A stretch of DNA of 64,000 nucleotides from the NCBI RefSeq assembly GCF_041346945.1, contig NZ_CP166850.1, positions 7,300,501-7,364,500 on the forward strand, read 5' to 3'. Origin of the DNA: Amycolatopsis sp. cg9 (lineage in GTDB: Bacteria > Actinomycetota > Actinomycetes > Mycobacteriales > Pseudonocardiaceae). Position 1 is the first letter of the stretch, and every line of letters begins with the position of its first letter. Shown one piece after another: positions 52,520 through 58,757 of the stretch. Position numbers and translations under genes: made by a program. The notes under the pieces were generated by a model. It saw only the letters and a list, made by a program, of their open reading frames with translations, was not told where the DNA came from and searched no databases.

Positions 52520-53044
52520 TCAGGGTTTCAGGTGGTGCAGCACGAAGATCCCGCCGACCGCGGGCCGGTCCCGGCGCTCGTGGTCGGTCGCCACGTACTC
52601 GTCCAGCACCGCCAGGATCCGGCGGTCGAGCTCGTCGACCTCGTCGGGGGACAGGTGCAGCAGGAACTTCTCGTGCACCGCCACCGAATCCGGGCCCGCG
52701 GCCGCGAGCTCCTCCTGGAAGATCTCGATCGGCGCGAACCGCGTCTCGGCGTCGGCGGTCGAGAGCGGGCCGTCCAGCCACCACGTCTCGTTGTCGGCGC
52801 GGTAGGGCTTCTCCAGTGCGCCGCTCGGGCCGGTGCGGACCGGGGCCGGCTGGAGGAGACCGGCGGCCACCAGCTGCCGGACGTGGTGCAGCACCGTGCC
52901 GGGGTCGCGGTCGAGGCGGTCGGCCAGCTGCTTGTTCGTCAGCTCGTCGACCAGGCACAGCCGCATGATGCGCAGCCGCAGCGGGTGGCCTAGGGCCTTC
53001 GCTTCGGCCGGCGTCGCGGGCCGCCGGTGGCGGGGCTCGTTCAT
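52520..53044 (-). CDS. ArsR-type winged-helix regulator
   Basis: This 174-residue regulator has an ArsR-like winged helix: ALGHPLRLRIMRLCLVDELT then NKQLADRLDRDPGTVLHHVR as recognition region (about residues 37-56), and LVAAGLLQPAP for the wing. There is no CxC metal-binding motif, so it is probably not a metal sensor. It is divergent from an MFS exporter and faces a run of four half-sites (53061-53121), its likely operator. It probably represses itself and the transporter. Confidence 0.88.
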   Translation of the reverse strand: MNEPRHRRPATPAEAKALGHPLRLRIMRLCLVDELTNKQLADRLDRDPGTVLHHVRQLVAAGLLQPAPVRTGPSGALEKPYRADNETWWLDGPLSTADAETRFAPIEIFQEELAAAGPDSVAVHEKFLLHLSPDEVDELDRRILAVLDEYVATDHERRDRPAVGGIFVLHHLKP

Positions 53045-53060
53045 GGACGCAGCGTAGTCG

Positions 53061-53121
53061 ATCGATGGGGAAACCTCAGATCGATGGAGAAAACCCCATC
53101 GATGTGCGATCCTCCATCAAT
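53061..53121. promoter_or_regulatory. Four-half-site operator between ArsR and MFS genes
   Basis: ATCGATGGGG (53061-53070) and ATCGATGGAG (53080-53089) are followed by inverted copies CCCCATCGAT (53094-53103) and CTCCATCAAT (53112-53121). The inner pair and the outer pair each form an inverted repeat about the centre at 53091. The last half-site covers the probable MFS start codon (53120), so binding would block both transcription and initiation. Confidence 0.8.
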
Positions 53122-54343
53122 GCACCGGACCTTCTGGCGGCTGTGGACCGCGGCGGGACTGTCGAGCCTCGCCGACGGCGTCCTCAAGGTCGCCCTGCCG
53201 CTGGTCGCCGTCGGGTACACCCGCTCGCCCGCGCTGGTGGCGGGGCTCGCGTTCGCCTTCAGCGTCCCGTGGCTGCTGTTCGCGCTGCCGGCCGGCGCGC
53301 TCGTCGACCGGCTCGACCGCCGCCGCGTGATGCTCACCGCGAACGTCCTGCGCGGCGGGCTGGTCGCCGCCGTCGCGCTGCTGACCGCCCTCGGCGGGGG
53401 ATCGATCTGGGTGCTCTACGTTGTCGCGCTGGGTGTCGGCACCGCCGAGACGCTCTACGACACCGCCGCGCAGTCGATCGTCCCGCAGGTCGTCGGGCGC
53501 GACGAGCTCGCGCGCGCCAACGGCCGGGTGTACGCGGTCGAGCAGACCGCCAACGAGTTCGCCGGGCCGCCGCTGGCCGGCGTCCTGGTCGCCGCCGGGG
53601 TGCTGGCCGCGCTCGCCACGCCGGTGGCGCTGTGGGCGGTGGCCGTCGCCGCGCTGCTGCTCGTGCGCGGCTCGTACCGGGTCCCGCGCGGGGACCGGTC
53701 CACCAGCCTGCGCACGGACATCGCCGAAGGCCTGCGGTTCCTGGTGCACCACAAGATCCTGCGGACGTTCTCGCTCATGGTCGCCGCGTTCAACTTCGCC
53801 ACCGGCGCCACGTTCGCGGTCCTCGTCCTCCACGCGGTCGGTCCCGGCTCGGCGATGGGGCTGTCCGGACCGGCGTTCGGCCTGCTGACGGCGATGACGG
53901 CGGCGGGCGGCCTGGCCGGCTCGCTGCTCGCCGAAGCGGTGGAACGCCGGCTCGGCCGCGTCCGCGCGCTCTGGGTGTCGTGGCTCGCCGGCGGCCTGAC
54001 GGTCGGCGTGCTCGCGGTGACGGCGAACCCGTACGCCGTGGGCGCGGCGTTCTTCGCCGGGGGCGCGGGAATCCTGGTGTCCAACGTCGTGATGGTGTCG
54101 CTGCGCCAGCGGATCACGCCGGACCGGCTGCTCGGCCGCCTCACCAGCAGCCACCGGCTCGTCGCGTGGGGCACGAAGTCGCTCGGCGCGCTGGCCGGCG
54201 GCGCGCTCGCGCAGGCGTCCGGGCTGCACACGGTGTTCGTCGTGATGGCCGTGCTGGCGTTTTCCGTGGTGGGCGGCCTCTTCGCGGTGACCGAAGACGC
54301 GCTCAGAGCCGCCGAGCCAGCAGTTCCGACACACCCGTCTTGA
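53120..54343 (+). CDS. Major facilitator superfamily transporter (drug-efflux type)
   Basis: This 407-residue protein has about twelve hydrophobic segments, a first-loop ALVDRLDRRRVML (MFS motif A), and the opening TFWRLWTAAGLSSLADGVLK typical of MFS_3 exporters. ATG 53120 is preferred because it gives the usual family start; an in-frame ATG at 53102 adds six residues. Neither has a clear ribosome-binding site, so the mRNA may be leaderless. The 3' end overlaps the convergent GNAT gene by 41 bases. Probably an exporter controlled by the ArsR-type regulator. Confidence 0.88.
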   Translation: MHRTFWRLWTAAGLSSLADGVLKVALPLVAVGYTRSPALVAGLAFAFSVPWLLFALPAGALVDRLDRRRVMLTANVLRGGLVAAVALLTALGGGSIWVLYVVALGVGTAETLYDTAAQSIVPQVVGRDELARANGRVYAVEQTANEFAGPPLAGVLVAAGVLAALATPVALWAVAVAALLLVRGSYRVPRGDRSTSLRTDIAEGLRFLVHHKILRTFSLMVAAFNFATGATFAVLVLHAVGPGSAMGLSGPAFGLLTAMTAAGGLAGSLLAEAVERRLGRVRALWVSWLAGGLTVGVLAVTANPYAVGAAFFAGGAGILVSNVVMVSLRQRITPDRLLGRLTSSHRLVAWGTKSLGALAGGALAQASGLHTVFVVMAVLAFSVVGGLFAVTEDALRAAEPAVPTHPS

Positions 54344-54773
54344 CCGGCGCCACCGCCGTCCAGCCCCAGCGGTGGTACAGCGCGTGCGCCGGCGCCGCCG
54401 TAGCCGCGGCGAGGACCGCGGCCGGCTCGGTCCGGTCGGCCAGCAGGCGGTCGAGCAGGGCCCGGCCGTGGCCGCGGCCGCGCTGCCCCGGCCGGACGGC
54501 GAACTCGTACACGTAGAACAGCGGGCCGCTCGCGAGCCACGGCGGCGGGCCGGCCGCCGCCAGGGAAGGCCACCAGCCCGCCTCGCGGCCGACGCCGTAG
54601 GCGAACCCGGCGAGCTCGCCGCCACTGTGGACGGTCTCGAGCGCGAACCCGGGCAGCTTCGCGTGCTCTGCCACCGCTTCGCGGAACCGGGCCGCGTCCG
54701 CTTCGCTTTCCCCATAAGGGGGTTCCCGGTAGACCTCGTGGTAGAGGTCGGTGAGCTCGGCCCAGTCAGGCAT
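54303..54773 (-). CDS. GNAT-family N-acetyltransferase, last gene of the YcaO unit
   Basis: This 156-residue protein has the GNAT acetyl-CoA loop VRPGQRGRGHGRALLDRLL (about residues 92-110), with YVYEFA on the preceding strand and ALYHRWGW near the C terminus. Its start lies 8 bases inside the end of the MFS gene on the same strand, so it is translationally coupled to precursor-YcaO-MFS. It could acetylate the peptide product (for example an N terminus freed by cleavage) or confer self-protection. Ordinary small-molecule acetylation is the alternative. Confidence 0.88.
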   Translation of the reverse strand: MPDWAELTDLYHEVYREPPYGESEADAARFREAVAEHAKLPGFALETVHSGGELAGFAYGVGREAGWWPSLAAAGPPPWLASGPLFYVYEFAVRPGQRGRGHGRALLDRLLADRTEPAAVLAAATAAPAHALYHRWGWTAVAPVKTGVSELLARRL

Positions 54774-55992
54774 CCACGTTCTCCCGCGTCGGGACCGCCT
54801 CCGGCGCCGCTTTCAGTCCCGCGAGGACGGCCACCGCCAGCATGCAGCACCCGGCCAGCACGAGCCACGGCAACTGCGGGCCGCCGGCCAGCAGCGCGGT
54901 GAAGGTCACCGGCGCCAGCACCCGCGCCGCACCCCAGAGCAGTTCCTCGAGCCCGAGGTAGCGCCCGCGCAGGTGGGCGGGGGCGAGCGCGACGGTCAGC
55001 GCACTGCTGGTCGGCGCCTGCAGCAGCTCGGCGGTGGTGAAGACCGCCGTGGCCACGGTCAGCACGGCGAACGCGGGCAGCGCGGTGACCAGCGGCACGG
55101 CCGCGTAGAGCAGGAACGCCCCGGCCCACACGACGGCCGCGACCTGGAGCGTCCGCGCCCGGCGGAAGCGGTCCACCCGCGCGGCCACGACCGTCTGCGC
55201 GAGCACCACCAGGACCGTGTTGAGGGCGAAGAGCACACCGGGCTGCCAGGCCGGCAACCGCAGCGCGTCGAGCACGTACGCGCTCAGCAGCACCGTCAAG
55301 GCCAAGTCGCACAACGCGAAGACGAAGACGGTCACGAGCACCCGGCGGAACGCGCGGTCGGCGAGCACGGCCCGGTAGCCCCCGCGCGGCGCGGCGGCCC
55401 GGGCCGGTGGTTCGGCGGCTTGGCCCCGCCAGGTCGCGACGAGCACCGCCGCGACGAGGAAGCTCACGGCGTTGAGCACGACGATCGCCGAGTACCCGCC
55501 CACCACGACGAGCACGCTGCCGGCCAGCCCGCCGAGGCCGATCCCGACGTTGCGCAGCGTGCGCTCCATCGCGTACCAGCGGGCGCGCTGCCCGTCGTCG
55601 GCCACCTGCGCCACCAGCGCGCCGGACGCGGGCCAGAACAGGCCTTCGCCCCAGAACGTCAGTGCCGCCAGCGCCACCAGCACCGCCGGCGATCCCGCGA
55701 AGACGTACCCGGTGAAGGTGAGCACCCGCAGCAGGTTCGCCGCGACGACGACCCGCCGCGGGCCGAAGCGGTCCACCAGCGGGCCCGCGCAGAGCCCGGC
55801 CGGCAGGGCGAGCAGCGCGGCCAGCGAAAGCGCCGCGCCGACCGCGGTGAGCGGAAGTCCTTTGGCGGCGTGGAAGTAGACGACGGCGAACGGCAGGAAC
55901 AGGCCGGTGCCGAGCGCGTCCACGCCCTGGGCGGCGACCAGCGGGCGGCGGCCCCGGGTGCGGGGCAGCCCGAGCAGTGCAGTGACGGCCAT
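54766..55992 (-). CDS. Major facilitator superfamily transporter in the YcaO unit
   Basis: This 408-residue, twelve-segment MFS protein has motif A as GPLVDRFGPRRVVVAANLLR and a central cytoplasmic loop (WRGQAAEPPARAAAPRGGYR). It starts ten bases after the YcaO stop and its end overlaps the GNAT start, so it is cotranscribed with both. In this setting it is the likely exporter of the modified peptide. RiPP exporters of the MFS type are known in other YcaO clusters. Confidence 0.9.
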   Translation of the reverse strand: MAVTALLGLPRTRGRRPLVAAQGVDALGTGLFLPFAVVYFHAAKGLPLTAVGAALSLAALLALPAGLCAGPLVDRFGPRRVVVAANLLRVLTFTGYVFAGSPAVLVALAALTFWGEGLFWPASGALVAQVADDGQRARWYAMERTLRNVGIGLGGLAGSVLVVVGGYSAIVVLNAVSFLVAAVLVATWRGQAAEPPARAAAPRGGYRAVLADRAFRRVLVTVFVFALCDLALTVLLSAYVLDALRLPAWQPGVLFALNTVLVVLAQTVVAARVDRFRRARTLQVAAVVWAGAFLLYAAVPLVTALPAFAVLTVATAVFTTAELLQAPTSSALTVALAPAHLRGRYLGLEELLWGAARVLAPVTFTALLAGGPQLPWLVLAGCCMLAVAVLAGLKAAPEAVPTRENVDA

Positions 55993-56002
55993 CGGTGCGT
56001 CC

Positions 56003-58384
56003 TCAGGCGTGGGGGAGCGGGAAGGTGTTCAGCCGCGCTTCGGGCAGGGGGTGCGCGCGCCAGCCGAGGTCGACCGCCGCGCGGCGCACCCGGCCGTCGC
56101 CCCAGTACGGCAGCCCGGCCGGGAAGTTGGCCACCAGCCCCGGCACGAGCGTGTGCGCGGCGTGGAACCCGGCGGCGGCGACGTCGCGGGTGGTGAGGTC
56201 CACGCTGAGCACCTCGAACCCGCGTGCCTCGACGCGTTCCCGGTAGGTCTTCAGCGTCCGTTCACCGAGCGCGGGCAGGCCTTCCCAGGTCCGTTCCGGC
56301 AGGTCGCGGACCCACGGTGCGACGTGGGCCGCGGCGCGCGGGTCGAGGTAGACCTGTTGCTGGCACAGCAGGTCCACGACGTCGCCGAAGTCCGCGCGGT
56401 AGGAGTCGAGGTAGCGCCGGTCGGCCCGGTACGGCTTCAGGTTGCCCAGGTGCGGCAGGTCGTCGCGCATCGCGGCCAGCTCGCGCTCGTCGTCGAGGGC
56501 GAGGCAGGTGTGCTGCAGCGTGAACCCTTCGGCGAGCGCCTTCTTCGCCGCTTCCAGCGCGTCGGGGCGGGTGGCGAACCCGATCGACAGCCAGCGCCGC
56601 GCGCGGTCGAACACCGCCGCCGCGACGACCGGGACGGCGAACTCGTTGTCCAGCGGGATCAGCGTCACGTCGTAGGTGTCCGTGGTGTCGGCGACGAGCG
56701 CGTGCACCTCGGGCGGCACCGGCAGCGCGCGCAGCCGCGGCGTGTTGGCCCACCACACCATGGTGGTGTCCCGTTCCAGGACTTCTTCGAGGCCGGAGGT
56801 GACGGCGTGCTCCGCGCTCGTGCCGCCGGCCAGCCCGGCGATCAGCGGGTCGGTGAAGCGCGCCCCGCCGGGTTCGGGCGCCTGCGAGACGAGGGCGGCC
56901 GGGACCCAGACCGGCTCCTTCGTCGTGTGCGAAAAGGCTTCCACCCACGCGCAGTCCGCGTCCGTGGTCAGCGGCGCGAACGGGAAGCCGGGGGTGGCGT
57001 ACTGCCGGGCCGAGTAGAGGTTGAGGCGGCGCGGGTCCAGCGCGGGGACGCCGGCGCGGCGAAGCTGGTCATAGCTGCCGTGGCGGATCTCGCGCTCCGG
57101 GGGCAGCCAGCTGCCGCAGTAGCGTTCGACGGCCTCCCCGATCGCGGACTCGCGGGCCGGCTCGAAGTCGTGCCACGACGTGCCGAACGCCTGGCGGTCG
57201 TTCGGCCAGTCGACGACCCGCCGCATGTCGGCGACGTCGACCGCGCACACCTTGAGCCGGGCGGGCATGCCGGGCGCGGCGGGCAGCTCGTGGACGGCGG
57301 TCACGATGCCGGTCCGGTCGTCGACGAGCAGATCCGGTCGCAGGCCTTGTTCTCGCACCGGCCGCGGCCGGTCGGGCACCGGGAGCACGGGCCGGGGGAG
57401 CGCGGTCAGCCGGACGGGGTCGAGCTCGAGTTCGCCGGTCGTCGTTTCGGCGGGTTCACCGGCGATCCACCGTTCGAGCTGGACGGCGAGGGCGGTGACC
57501 AGCCAGCGGGCGTCGGCTTGCCGGAACCGCGGCCCGGCCGGGGCTTCGGCGGCGGCGAAGGCGTCGGTGACCCGGGCGTCGAGGGCGGCCGAGCGGCGGC
57601 GCGCCAGCACGTCGGCGAAGTCGGGGCCGAAACCGGGTTCGACGGCGGGGCCGGCGATGCCCTGGCCGCGTTCGCAGCGGAAGGGGAAGAACCGCACGCC
57701 GTGCTCGGTGCAGAACGCGTCCAGCGCGGCGAGCTCGCGGTAGGCGGGGTGGGTGTAGGCGGCGACGAGAACGGTGTCCGCCGGGTCCAGGGGAAAGGTG
57801 GCTTCGGCCAGGGGCTGCACCGCGCGGAAGGCGGCCGAGCCGAGGATGTCCGCCGGGTCCGCGGGGGCCGCGGTTTCGGCGAGGGGCTGCGCTGAGCCGT
57901 GGTCGGCCGAGCCGGGAATCTCCGCCGGGACTGCGGTGTCGGCGTGCGGCCCCGCCGAGTCATCGCCGGCCGTGCGGAGGACCTCCGCCGGGTTCACCAG
58001 GAGCGCGGCTTCGGCCAGCGGCCGCACCGCGCCGTAAGCGGTCGCGCCGAGCACCTCCGTCAGCACCCCCGTCAACTCGGCTGCCCCGGTGACCAGCACC
58101 GTCGTCGCGGCCAGGCGGCGGGCGCCGTCGTCGCCGGTGGCCGGATGCAGGCAGCCGTCCGCTTCGAGGACGTCGAGCACCTCCGCGTGGTCCGGGCTCA
58201 TCCCGGCGAGCAGCTCGGCCCGCGTCCGGGTGCCGTCGCAGCGGCCGAGCCACGCGCGGAACTCGCCGACCGGCGCGGTGATCGAGTACTGCCCGCCGTT
58301 CGGGGTGATGAGCAGGCACAGCTCCGGCTCGAGGTCATGGAGCTCGACGCCGGTCAGCTGCAGGCGGGTGTCGTCGGAAGGCAT
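56003..58384 (-). CDS. YcaO-domain cyclodehydratase-like protein with N-terminal leader-binding-like domain
   Basis: This 793-residue protein is a probable RiPP-modifying enzyme. Residues about 1-80 (LLITPNGGQYSITAPVGEFR, GTRTRAELLAGM) look like a winged-helix recognition element. Residues about 113-200 contain imperfect repeats of a PLAEA...PADILGSA unit. The YcaO domain fills the C-terminal half, with ATP-site signatures ESAIGEAVERYCG (near 414) and SAEHAVTSGLEEVLERD (near 528). The C terminus ends FPLPHA, echoing the Pro-rich tails of azoline-forming YcaOs. The Cys pairs that bind zinc in fused TOMM cyclodehydratases are missing at the expected linker (PVPDRPRPVREQ). It lies 75 bases after the VVHNRA peptide gene. 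YcaO enzymes activate backbone amides with ATP; the product bond here is unknown. Confidence 0.9.
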   Translation of the reverse strand: MPSDDTRLQLTGVELHDLEPELCLLITPNGGQYSITAPVGEFRAWLGRCDGTRTRAELLAGMSPDHAEVLDVLEADGCLHPATGDDGARRLAATTVLVTGAAELTGVLTEVLGATAYGAVRPLAEAALLVNPAEVLRTAGDDSAGPHADTAVPAEIPGSADHGSAQPLAETAAPADPADILGSAAFRAVQPLAEATFPLDPADTVLVAAYTHPAYRELAALDAFCTEHGVRFFPFRCERGQGIAGPAVEPGFGPDFADVLARRRSAALDARVTDAFAAAEAPAGPRFRQADARWLVTALAVQLERWIAGEPAETTTGELELDPVRLTALPRPVLPVPDRPRPVREQGLRPDLLVDDRTGIVTAVHELPAAPGMPARLKVCAVDVADMRRVVDWPNDRQAFGTSWHDFEPARESAIGEAVERYCGSWLPPEREIRHGSYDQLRRAGVPALDPRRLNLYSARQYATPGFPFAPLTTDADCAWVEAFSHTTKEPVWVPAALVSQAPEPGGARFTDPLIAGLAGGTSAEHAVTSGLEEVLERDTTMVWWANTPRLRALPVPPEVHALVADTTDTYDVTLIPLDNEFAVPVVAAAVFDRARRWLSIGFATRPDALEAAKKALAEGFTLQHTCLALDDERELAAMRDDLPHLGNLKPYRADRRYLDSYRADFGDVVDLLCQQQVYLDPRAAAHVAPWVRDLPERTWEGLPALGERTLKTYRERVEARGFEVLSVDLTTRDVAAAGFHAAHTLVPGLVANFPAGLPYWGDGRVRRAAVDLGWRAHPLPEARLNTFPLPHA

Positions 58385-58408
58385 GGGCGATCCCCTCGTC
58401 GGCGGGGC

Positions 58409-58441
58409 CGTGCCGCGGCCCGGGGTACGGGCCGCGGCACG
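58409..58441 (-). terminator. 13-bp hairpin between peptide gene and YcaO gene
   Basis: CGTGCCGCGGCCC (58409-58421) and its exact complement (58429-58441) enclose a seven-base loop. It lies in the 75-base gap between precursor and YcaO genes. Such partial terminators are typical in RiPP operons, where much more peptide than enzyme is needed. Confidence 0.7.
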
Positions 58442-58459
58442 TCGGCGGCTGGGCGGGGA

Positions 58460-58594
58460 CTACTTGGCGGACGCGCGGTTGTGCACGACGGCGCGGTTGT
58501 GGACCACGGCGCGGTTGTGGACGACGGCCCGGTTGTGGACGACCGCGCGGTTGTGGACGACGACGGCCGACGGGCGCTCGAAGGTCGAGATCAT
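58460..58594 (-). CDS. Candidate RiPP precursor peptide with five VVHNRA repeats
   Basis: This 44-residue gene starts at ATG 58594 behind GGAGG and stops at TAG 58460. The peptide is a ten-residue N-terminal part MISTFERPSA, an extra V, five perfect tandem copies of VVHNRA (residues 12-41), and the tail SAK. Copies vary at third codon positions (GCG/GCC, GTC/GTG) while the residues are unchanged, which argues for selection on the protein. The repeats contain no Cys, Ser or Thr, so classical azoline formation cannot occur in them; His, Asn and Arg are the reactive candidates. It leads a minus-strand unit with YcaO, MFS and GNAT genes. Upstream, CCGTGCGTTC occurs twice (58674 and 58719), perhaps regulator sites. 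Confidence 0.85.
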   Translation of the reverse strand: MISTFERPSAVVVHNRAVVHNRAVVHNRAVVHNRAVVHNRASAK

Positions 58595-58757
58595 GGTTCC
58601 TCCTGCGGAGTGGGTGGGATGTCCCCCGGCGGGCCCACCGGGGCGGGGTGACGGGAACCAGTTTCGGGTGGCGCCGTGCGTTCCGACGTCTTCTCGAGTG
58701 CGATCCGCACCGGCGCACCCGTGCGTTCGTCACGGTCAGGGCGTGACCGGCGCACGA

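What the first reader, a model, noticed from the sequence alone, without database searches (positions are those of the whole stretch)
54303..58594. Candidate new RiPP system: VVHNRA-repeat peptide, YcaO, MFS exporter, GNAT
A 44-residue gene with its own GGAGG site encodes five perfect tandem VVHNRA units. It is followed on the same strand by a YcaO enzyme, an exporter and an acetyltransferase, the last three tightly spaced or overlapping. YcaO enzymes modify ribosomal peptides, and repeated cores are known in a few families (thiovarsolin-type precursors carry repeated short cores). Here the repeats have no Cys, Ser or Thr, so azoles or azolines are excluded within the repeats, and no TfuA partner is present to suggest thioamidation. 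A modification at His, Asn or Arg (for example an amidine or side-chain-to-backbone ring), with proteolytic release of small units, would be new chemistry. I know of no described family with this motif, but that is from memory.
Basis: partly seen in the sequence, partly recalled or inferred. Interest (0 to 1): 0.94.

Follow-up and report, generated by a model that had tools for sequence, protein, structure and literature searches.

The report
VVHNRA-repeat ribosomal peptide operon
In Amycolatopsis and Streptomyces bacteria, a tiny gene that the protein database searched almost entirely lacks repeats one six-residue block (VVHNRA) four to six times beside an amide-activating YcaO enzyme, an exporter and an acetyltransferase, and the set likely makes a new branch of ribosomal natural products in which the enzyme would close a ring at the asparagine of every block.

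Summary
In detail: 58460-58594 (-) encodes MISTFERPSAV(VVHNRA)x5SAK behind an AGGAGG site, followed by YcaO, MFS and GNAT genes. It is no chance ORF. It occurs in 16 of 390 family genomes, always beside this YcaO, and in 8 of 8 Streptomyces loci found; all 111 units read V[VI]HNR, and per site silent differences exceed amino-acid-changing ones about 50-fold. Intact genes have 4, 5 or 6 units. Across 25 Amycolatopsis genomes with this YcaO, GNAT is present in 16 of 16 with the peptide gene and 0 of 9 without, over at least four separate losses; in 7 of those 9 the YcaO has three to six of six ATP-site residues replaced. So the peptide is very probably the YcaO's substrate. The enzyme is an RRE-like/E1-like/YcaO fusion in a superclade with streptamidine-type YcaOs but outside their clade. 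TfuA is absent from 12 of 16 peptide-bearing genomes. Relatives' precursors mostly carry Asn, often as HN or NH. I commit to ring closure at Asn of each His-Asn pair (dihydropyrimidone-like), then release, acetylation and export; this chemistry is inferred and untested. New variant of a known kind; interest 0.68.

The parts
58460..58594 (-). precursor peptide gene, 44 aa: MISTFERPSAV(VVHNRA)x5SAK
   Evidence: found in 24 loci; pS 0.290 against pN 0.0055 in the repeats
58472..58561 (-). array of five VVHNRA units, 18 nt each
   Evidence: TRF 58473-58562, period 18, 5.0 copies; coordinates counted from the translation
58599..58604 (-). AGGAGG ribosome-binding site of the precursor
   Evidence: GGAGG stands before 21 of 24 precursors, AGAGG before two, and the site is deleted in G098
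56003..58384 (-). RRE-like/E1-like/YcaO fusion enzyme, 793 aa
58145..58384 (-). N-terminal domain, RRE-like by fold (residues 1-80)
   Evidence: model ranges 5-792 on TruD and 6-342 on MccB (which calls this part barely tested); the N-terminal profile hits a separate ORF in 3 of 7 motif-A loci
57359..58138 (-). E1-like domain (residues 83-342)
56006..57349 (-). YcaO catalytic domain (residues 346-793), with E417, E420, E534, E537, K615, E619 and C-terminus FPLPHA
54766..55992 (-). MFS transporter, likely exporter, 408 aa
   Evidence: PF07690 125.5 bits; ortholog at 72-100% identity in 15 of 16 genomes with the peptide gene, 0 of 9 without
54303..54773 (-). GNAT acetyltransferase, 156 aa
   Evidence: PF00583; present in 16 of 16 genomes with the peptide gene, 0 of 9 without; GNAT fold

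Best explanation
This is a four-gene set on one strand, likely one operon, whose short gene encodes five perfect VVHNRA blocks, and the blocks are likely the multi-copy core of a ribosomal natural product that the fused YcaO enzyme is predicted to modify by closing a ring at the asparagine of each His-Asn pair. Shown: gene layout, conservation of every block in two actinomycete families, protein-level purifying selection, co-loss of peptide gene, exporter and acetyltransferase, and replacement of the YcaO's ATP-site residues in most loci without the peptide. Inferred: the N-terminal domain binds the roughly ten-residue leader (MIS..FE); the YcaO uses ATP to activate the backbone carbonyl before Asn, and the Asn side-chain nitrogen attacks it with help from the neighbouring His, giving a six-membered dihydropyrimidone-like ring (-18.01 Da per block); with no dehydrogenase in the operon the ring would stay unoxidised. 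Inferred: host peptidases cut the array, probably beside Arg, into roughly hexapeptide units; the GNAT acetylates the freed N-terminus; the MFS protein exports the product.
For: Peptide is the substrate: the precursor, sought by its own sequence, is in 16 of 390 genomes, all 16 among the 25 with this YcaO; 8 of 8 Streptomyces loci found also have it; no other gene was seen in all three genomic contexts (crude ORF caller). GNAT 16/16 against 0/9 and MFS 15/16 against 0/9, at least four losses on the tree, although the YcaO gene lies between the lost parts. Six ATP-site residues: unchanged in 22 intact YcaOs, changed in 28 of 54 cells of the 9 peptide-less ones, against 153 of 1923 cells at other positions invariant in the 22 (the six were picked after one search showed which residues break). 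LynD/TruD/MusD-like architecture. Asn as target: N invariant in 111 of 111 units; the related APHNH family keeps HN-basic-[A or S]; 15 of 18 precursor types that I chose have Asn after position 12 against 7.3 expected (background frequency recalled). YcaOs can install nucleobase-like modifications (PMC13063428 passage). That Asn becomes a pyrimidone with help from a His (Pei et al. 2025) is recalled; the paper is not held. TfuA is absent from 12 of 16 genomes with the peptide.
Against: No chemistry was measured. H, N and R are equally invariant, so conservation does not single out Asn. 3 of 18 precursor types have no Asn in the core, several were located with motif searches that contain N or H, so the enrichment is biased, and the nearby NTC family carries Cys near Asn. 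No dehydrogenase or hydrolase was seen to recur beside the operon, although AmiE and AmiC are essential for streptamidine (PMC8442711). In streptamidine-type precursors the block resembling AVVHN (ALVHN/ALVEN) lies after the core, so the repeats could be recognition sequence. Relaxed selection in the peptide-less YcaOs is uneven: dN/dS is not raised in G098 and G110, and G110 and G119 keep the ATP-site acids. No protease was seen in the operon.
Confidence: 0.4

Rival explanations
1. Each unit is first cut free and the YcaO then joins the new N-terminal amine to a nearby backbone carbonyl, giving an amidine ring as in streptamidine.
For: Same YcaO superclade as streptamidine-type loci; streptamidine is a hexapeptide with an amidine between residues 1 and 2 (PMC8442711); the unit is also six residues.
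Against: A hydrolase such as the one predicted to free the amine in streptamidine was not seen to recur here; a GNAT would compete for that amine; the leader would be cut off before the enzyme acts on all but the first unit.
Confidence: 0.15
2. The YcaO puts an external nucleophile on the backbone: sulfur (thioamide without TfuA) or ammonia (amidine).
For: External nucleophiles are known for YcaOs (PMC12670281 passage); thiovarsolins come from repeated cores with Arg and are N-acetylated (PMC6511847 passages).
Against: TfuA is missing from 12 of 16 genomes with the peptide; the own-genome TfuA sits beside another YcaO.
Confidence: 0.12
3. The YcaO is an ATP-dependent peptidase like MusD and its job is to cut the array into units.
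For: MusD is the best sequence match among solved structures and close in fold; no other protease was seen in the operon.
Against: LynD and TruD score about as well; MusD acts on an azoline substrate (recalled), and the repeats have no azoline residues.
Confidence: 0.1
4. The array is only a recognition or binding element: the modified spot is outside it (Cys/Thr before the array in Streptomyces, Ser/Thr after it), or the peptide is not a natural-product precursor.
For: Streptomyces precursors (8 of 8) have C or T two residues before the first VVHNR, and the last unit is followed by S or T in 12 of 24 precursors; Ser3 of the leader is shared by 23 of 24; ALVHN-like motifs lie after the core of streptamidine-type precursors.
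Against: No Cys/Ser/Thr position next to the array is shared by all 24; copy-number change and invariance of the unit suggest that the unit itself counts.
Confidence: 0.13

Closest known systems
Streptamidine family (ami clusters, PMC8442711)
   Same: YcaO in one superclade; the N-terminal half matches a separate ORF in 3 of 7 motif-A loci, like the RRE/E1-like AmiB; short precursors without Ser/Thr/Cys-rich regions; 'ALV[HE]N' resembles 'AVVHN'.
   Different: This YcaO lies outside the clade that holds motif A and motif B YcaOs; partner and YcaO are fused; four to six short repeats; MFS and GNAT instead of ABC or Fec transporters; no hydrolase or dehydrogenase seen to recur.
Peptide-nucleobase hybrids, spyrimidone (Pei et al. 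2025; recalled, cited in PMC12670281, PMC13063428, PMC13174530)
   Same: YcaO acting without Cys/Ser/Thr; Asn and His in the precursor (recalled).
   Different: There a dehydrogenase (recalled) and the follower-cutting SpyE (PMC13174530 passage) take part; neither was seen here.
Thiovarsolins (PMC6511847)
   Same: Repeated precursor cores containing Arg, YcaO, N-acetylated short products.
   Different: TfuA and heme oxygenase there, no TfuA in this operon; the acetylation there is thought to be by host enzymes.
Cyanobactin heterocyclases LynD/TruD and muscoride MusD
   Same: Domain order and fold, ATP-site acids.
   Different: Their cores have Cys/Ser/Thr (recalled); 16-22% identity.

Membership tests
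SagD-type YcaO (TIGR03604) | score above the curated cut-off | tested here: met
   256.5 against 219.25 bits
Azol(in)e-containing RiPPs (TOMM) | Cys, Ser or Thr in the modified core | tested here: not met
   none in VVHNR of 111 of 111 units; Cys/Thr/Ser only in flanks
Streptamidine family (Network 1) | YcaO inside the motif A/motif B clade | tested here: not met
   motif A and B rows share a 98-support clade (with SNHA and HTP rows) that excludes the VVHNR clade
Streptamidine family (Network 1) | precursor motif A or B | tested here: not met
   AVVHNR only resembles ALV[HE]NPF
Streptamidine family (Network 1) | hydrolase AmiC and dehydrogenase AmiE in the cluster | tested here: not met
Streptamidine family (Network 1) | amidine ring in the product | not testable with these tools
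   needs mass spectrometry and NMR
Peptide-nucleobase hybrids (spyrimidone) | Asn converted to a pyrimidone | not testable with these tools
   needs in vitro reaction
Peptide-nucleobase hybrids (spyrimidone) | dehydrogenase and follower esterase beside the YcaO | tested here: not met
TfuA-YcaO thioamidated RiPPs (thiovarsolin type) | TfuA partner | tested here: not met
   absent from the operon and from 12 of 16 whole genomes with the peptide
TfuA-YcaO thioamidated RiPPs (thiovarsolin type) | repeated core in the precursor | tested here: met
   four to six units in intact genes
RRE-dependent RiPP enzyme | RRE domain fused to or beside the enzyme | tested here: inconclusive
   the N-terminal 80 residues fit TruD/MccB ranges, but that part is barely tested there; AmiB-like by profile in 3 of 7 motif-A loci

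The most novel reading that the evidence does not exclude
One short gene encodes four to six identical His-Asn blocks and a single fused YcaO turns every Asn into a nucleobase-like six-membered ring, so the cell makes either a ribosomally encoded chain of nucleobase-like units or several copies of one such unit per precursor; the HN/NH-rich precursors beside related YcaOs would make this a broad, little-explored class of Asn-directed YcaO chemistry.
Probability: 0.28. Interest if true: 0.9.

Novelty: new variant of a known kind. Interest (0 to 1): 0.68.

Why it matters
It is a compact (four-gene) and testable system for YcaO chemistry where the usual Cys/Ser/Thr nucleophiles are excluded by the sequence of the repeats. 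The peptide is nearly absent from a database of 5.8 billion predicted proteins (one damaged relative found), so mining that relies on annotated proteins would miss it. The natural series of losses, with ATP-site residues replaced where the peptide is gone, ties enzyme to substrate without an experiment. The same search turned up several further HN-, NH- or NTC-type precursor families beside related YcaOs.

Tried and rejected
Chance ORF or low-complexity artefact: rejected by selection and frame tests and by 24 loci. Folded hexapeptide beta-helix: one Pfam Hexapep hit, E 0.0022, 18.1 bits, below the 27-bit cut-off; five hexapeptides are less than two coils (recalled), so not pursued. DUF1996, ArsR and the second MFS gene as core parts: they do not recur in all contexts. 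DUF885 gene as processing peptidase: near the operon in 6 of 8 Streptomyces loci, one on the other strand, no HExxH in 6 of 6: left open. GNAT substrate from structure: matches range from N-terminal acetyltransferases to polyamine, aminoglycoside and phosphinothricin acetyltransferases, so undecided. Papers: one search returned mostly wild-dog and plant papers because the enzyme name is inside 'Lycaon'; no held paper prints NALVENPF, NALVHNPF, VVHNRA, VNTCVAA, VNNCVAA or APHNHAV; among the 15 of 69 papers listed no title or abstract start points to this peptide.

Rows dropped: two intended outgroup loci (L170, L171) gave no usable row for the tree, and L067 (YcaO cut at residue 637) was left out. 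No precursor was recognised in L071, L073, L139, L148, L149 and L150.

What was read: PMC8442711 parts 1-3 of 5; PMC12670281 passages and reference list; PMC6511847, PMC4603692, PMC13063428, PMC13174530, PMC12455567, PMC12710340 passages; Pei et al. 2025 (PMC11912545) and PMC6535971 not held; the first is used from recall.
Full report
WHAT IS THERE. On the minus strand, 58460-58594 encodes MISTFERPSAV followed by five VVHNRA units and SAK, with AGGAGG 4 nt upstream of the start. Tandem Repeats Finder sees the array as 5.0 copies of 18 nt. 75 nt downstream starts a 793-residue YcaO protein, then an MFS transporter 10 nt on, then a GNAT overlapping by 8 nt. The YcaO passes TIGR03604 and PF02624; the others are PF07690 and PF00583.

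IT IS A REAL GENE. The precursor was sought by its own sequence in 390 genomes of the family, the window's own included: 16 match at E up to 1.2e-10, all beside this YcaO; 25 more genomes have only weak hits (E 5.8e-7 to 0.0084), none of them among the genomes with this YcaO clade, and I did not inspect them. With 8 Streptomyces loci there are 24 precursors. They hold 111 units: V 111/111; V 107 and I 4; H 111/111; N 111/111; R 111/111. The four I are the four units of one plasmid copy. Unit number is 4 in all 8 Streptomyces, 5 in 14 Amycolatopsis, 6 in one, and 3 in G098, whose start codon and ribosome-binding site are deleted. In the 14 five-unit genes the repeats have pS 0.290 and pN 0.0055; the real frame has 766 silent and 251 amino-acid-changing codon differences, the other five frames 46-534 and 470-958. 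23 of 24 begin MIS or LIS (TTG start in three) and all 24 end in Lys. A search of 5.8 billion predicted proteins found one relative, a metagenomic ORF whose array runs out of frame, and the annotation of the plasmid copy (L130) shows no gene at that place, though that gene table is incomplete; so gene finders probably miss it.

ENZYME AND PEPTIDE BELONG TOGETHER. 25 of the 390 genomes carry this YcaO at 61% identity or more. The peptide gene is in 16. A genome-wide search finds the GNAT in the same 16 and in 0 of the other 9. The MFS ortholog (72-100% identity) is in 15 of 16 (in G098 only a remnant remains) and 0 of 9; only paralogs of 37% or less appear there. Blemishes: the G090 MFS frame holds one stop; in G152 the GNAT lies about 1.5 kb beyond the MFS; of the 8 Streptomyces loci all have the GNAT but L067 lacks the MFS and has its YcaO cut at residue 637, perhaps an assembly fault. 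On the YcaO tree the 9 peptide-less rows need at least four separate changes. The peptide gene lies upstream and MFS and GNAT downstream of the YcaO, so one deletion cannot explain a loss that leaves the YcaO. An alignment of four close relatives shows steps: intact in G104 and G129, start and two units gone in G098, whole array gone with its edges left in G110. The gene set stands in three different neighbourhoods (DUF1996 side in one Amycolatopsis group, another site in the A. orientalis group, and Streptomyces); by a crude ORF caller (90 aa or more) no other gene was seen in all three.

THE ENZYME CHANGES WHERE THE PEPTIDE IS GONE. Of 50 residues that are invariant in 22 intact YcaOs of the clade and in over 90% of 42 relatives, 33 replacements occur in the 9 peptide-less YcaOs, and 28 of these fall on six residues: E417, E420, E534, E537, K615, E619. 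I picked these six after seeing that list. In MusD, TruD and LynD the five acids align with acids and K615 with Arg; that they bind ATP and Mg is recalled. Among relatives they hold but for E534 (Q in two rows) and K615 (S in one; R in the three outgroup rows). Counted over 54 cells, 28 are changed, against 153 of 1923 at other positions invariant in the 22 (odds ratio 12.5; the Fisher p of 3e-16 ignores relatedness and the post-hoc choice; 21 distinct lineage-substitutions at 6 sites against 114 at 222). By row, L034, L035, L038-L044: 3, 6, 0, 1, 5, 3, 3, 4, 3 of six; some are mild (E619D, K615R). The 0 and 1 are G110 and G119. No stops lie in the matched parts, but L043 has an internal gap, L044 lacks the C-terminus and L039-L042 and L044 no longer match residues 1-177. 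dN/dS against intact relatives is 0.32-0.46 for three rows, 0.18-0.32 for five, and 0.10-0.17 for G110 and the decaying G098; intact pairs give 0.12-0.30. Change concentrated on the ATP site in open frames hints at reuse as a non-enzyme, or at staged decay; this is unexplained.

PRECURSORS OF THE RELATIVES. Beside related YcaOs are short peptides: VVNTCVAASL or VVNNCVAAYV in three or four repeats, one of them beside the paralog in the window's own genome (L122) and one (L131) annotated as a hypothetical protein; APHNHAVTAASFHWS; ANNNVAPEIEFSWDED; VHSSNHATARSSSVAWR; and the streptamidine motifs HSNALVENPFD and TNALVHNPF. Whether the others are annotated was not checked. APHNHA and VVHNRA share H-N-basic-A (Nonomuraea has HNHS), and their starts are alike (MIREV.E, MISTFE). 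Of 18 representatives that I chose from 33 peptides, 15 have Asn and 14 have His after position 12 (expected 7.3 and 8.4 from background frequencies I recalled; P 0.0002 and 0.006). This is biased: several were located with motifs holding N or H, the types are not fully independent, and loci without a recognised precursor are left out. The three without Asn are L048, L049 and L152.

HOW IT LIKELY WORKS. Azolines are excluded inside the repeats by the lack of Cys, Ser and Thr. TfuA-dependent thioamidation is unlikely: TfuA is absent from 12 of 16 peptide-bearing genomes, and in the window's genome it sits beside another YcaO. YcaOs that install nucleobase-like modifications are known (PMC13063428), and SpyE cuts off the follower in that pathway (PMC13174530); that the ring is made from Asn with the help of a His is recalled from Pei et al. 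2025, which is not held. An invariant His-Asn pair in every unit fits that chemistry best, hence the commitment to a dihydropyrimidone-like ring at Asn. It is not proven: H, N and R are equally conserved, no dehydrogenase or esterase was seen to recur here, and by another reading (AVVHN against ALVHN) the unit resembles the part after the streptamidine core, not the core.

VERDICT. The locus is a real, conserved RiPP-type locus (about 0.9). The detailed chemistry is a bet (0.4). It is a new branch near, but by tree and gene content not inside, the streptamidine family.

Noticed in passing
L034, L035, L040, L041, L042, L043, L044 (YcaO residues 417-619): YcaOs of loci without the peptide gene have three to six of six ATP-site residues replaced without stops in the matched parts, in at least three lineages: possible non-catalytic reuse or staged decay.
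   Followed up: partly
L122 (window's own genome, G000:C1:10341703 region, outside the window); L132, L133, L134, L136, L137, L131: Paralogous YcaO beside a precursor with three or four VNTCVAA or VNNCVAA-type repeats; the repeat layout resembles VVHNRA with Cys near where Arg stands.
   Followed up: partly
L068, L070, L072, L076, L107, L144, L047, L074, L145, L146, L147: Single-core precursors rich in His-Asn or Asn-His (APHNHA, APNGNHH, HSSNHAT) beside one or two YcaO genes.
   Followed up: partly
57775-57992: 63-72 nt repeats inside the YcaO gene encode about residues 131-204, overlapping a low-confidence stretch (pLDDT under 50 at 134-182) that the 14 other rows of the first alignment largely lack.
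   Followed up: no
52520-54343: ArsR-like regulator and a second MFS gene lie beside the operon; a related MFS next to a winged-helix gene stands upstream of the operon on a Streptomyces plasmid (L130).
   Followed up: no
L055, L056, L061, L062, L064, L130: A 564-residue gene, annotated as DUF885 in L130, lies near the GNAT end of the Streptomyces operons (6 of 8; opposite strand in L062); in L130 it overlaps the GNAT gene.
   Followed up: partly
P0077: A metagenomic 41-aa ORF begins like the precursor but leaves the repeat pattern within the second unit: an array damaged by slippage or a sequencing error.
   Followed up: no
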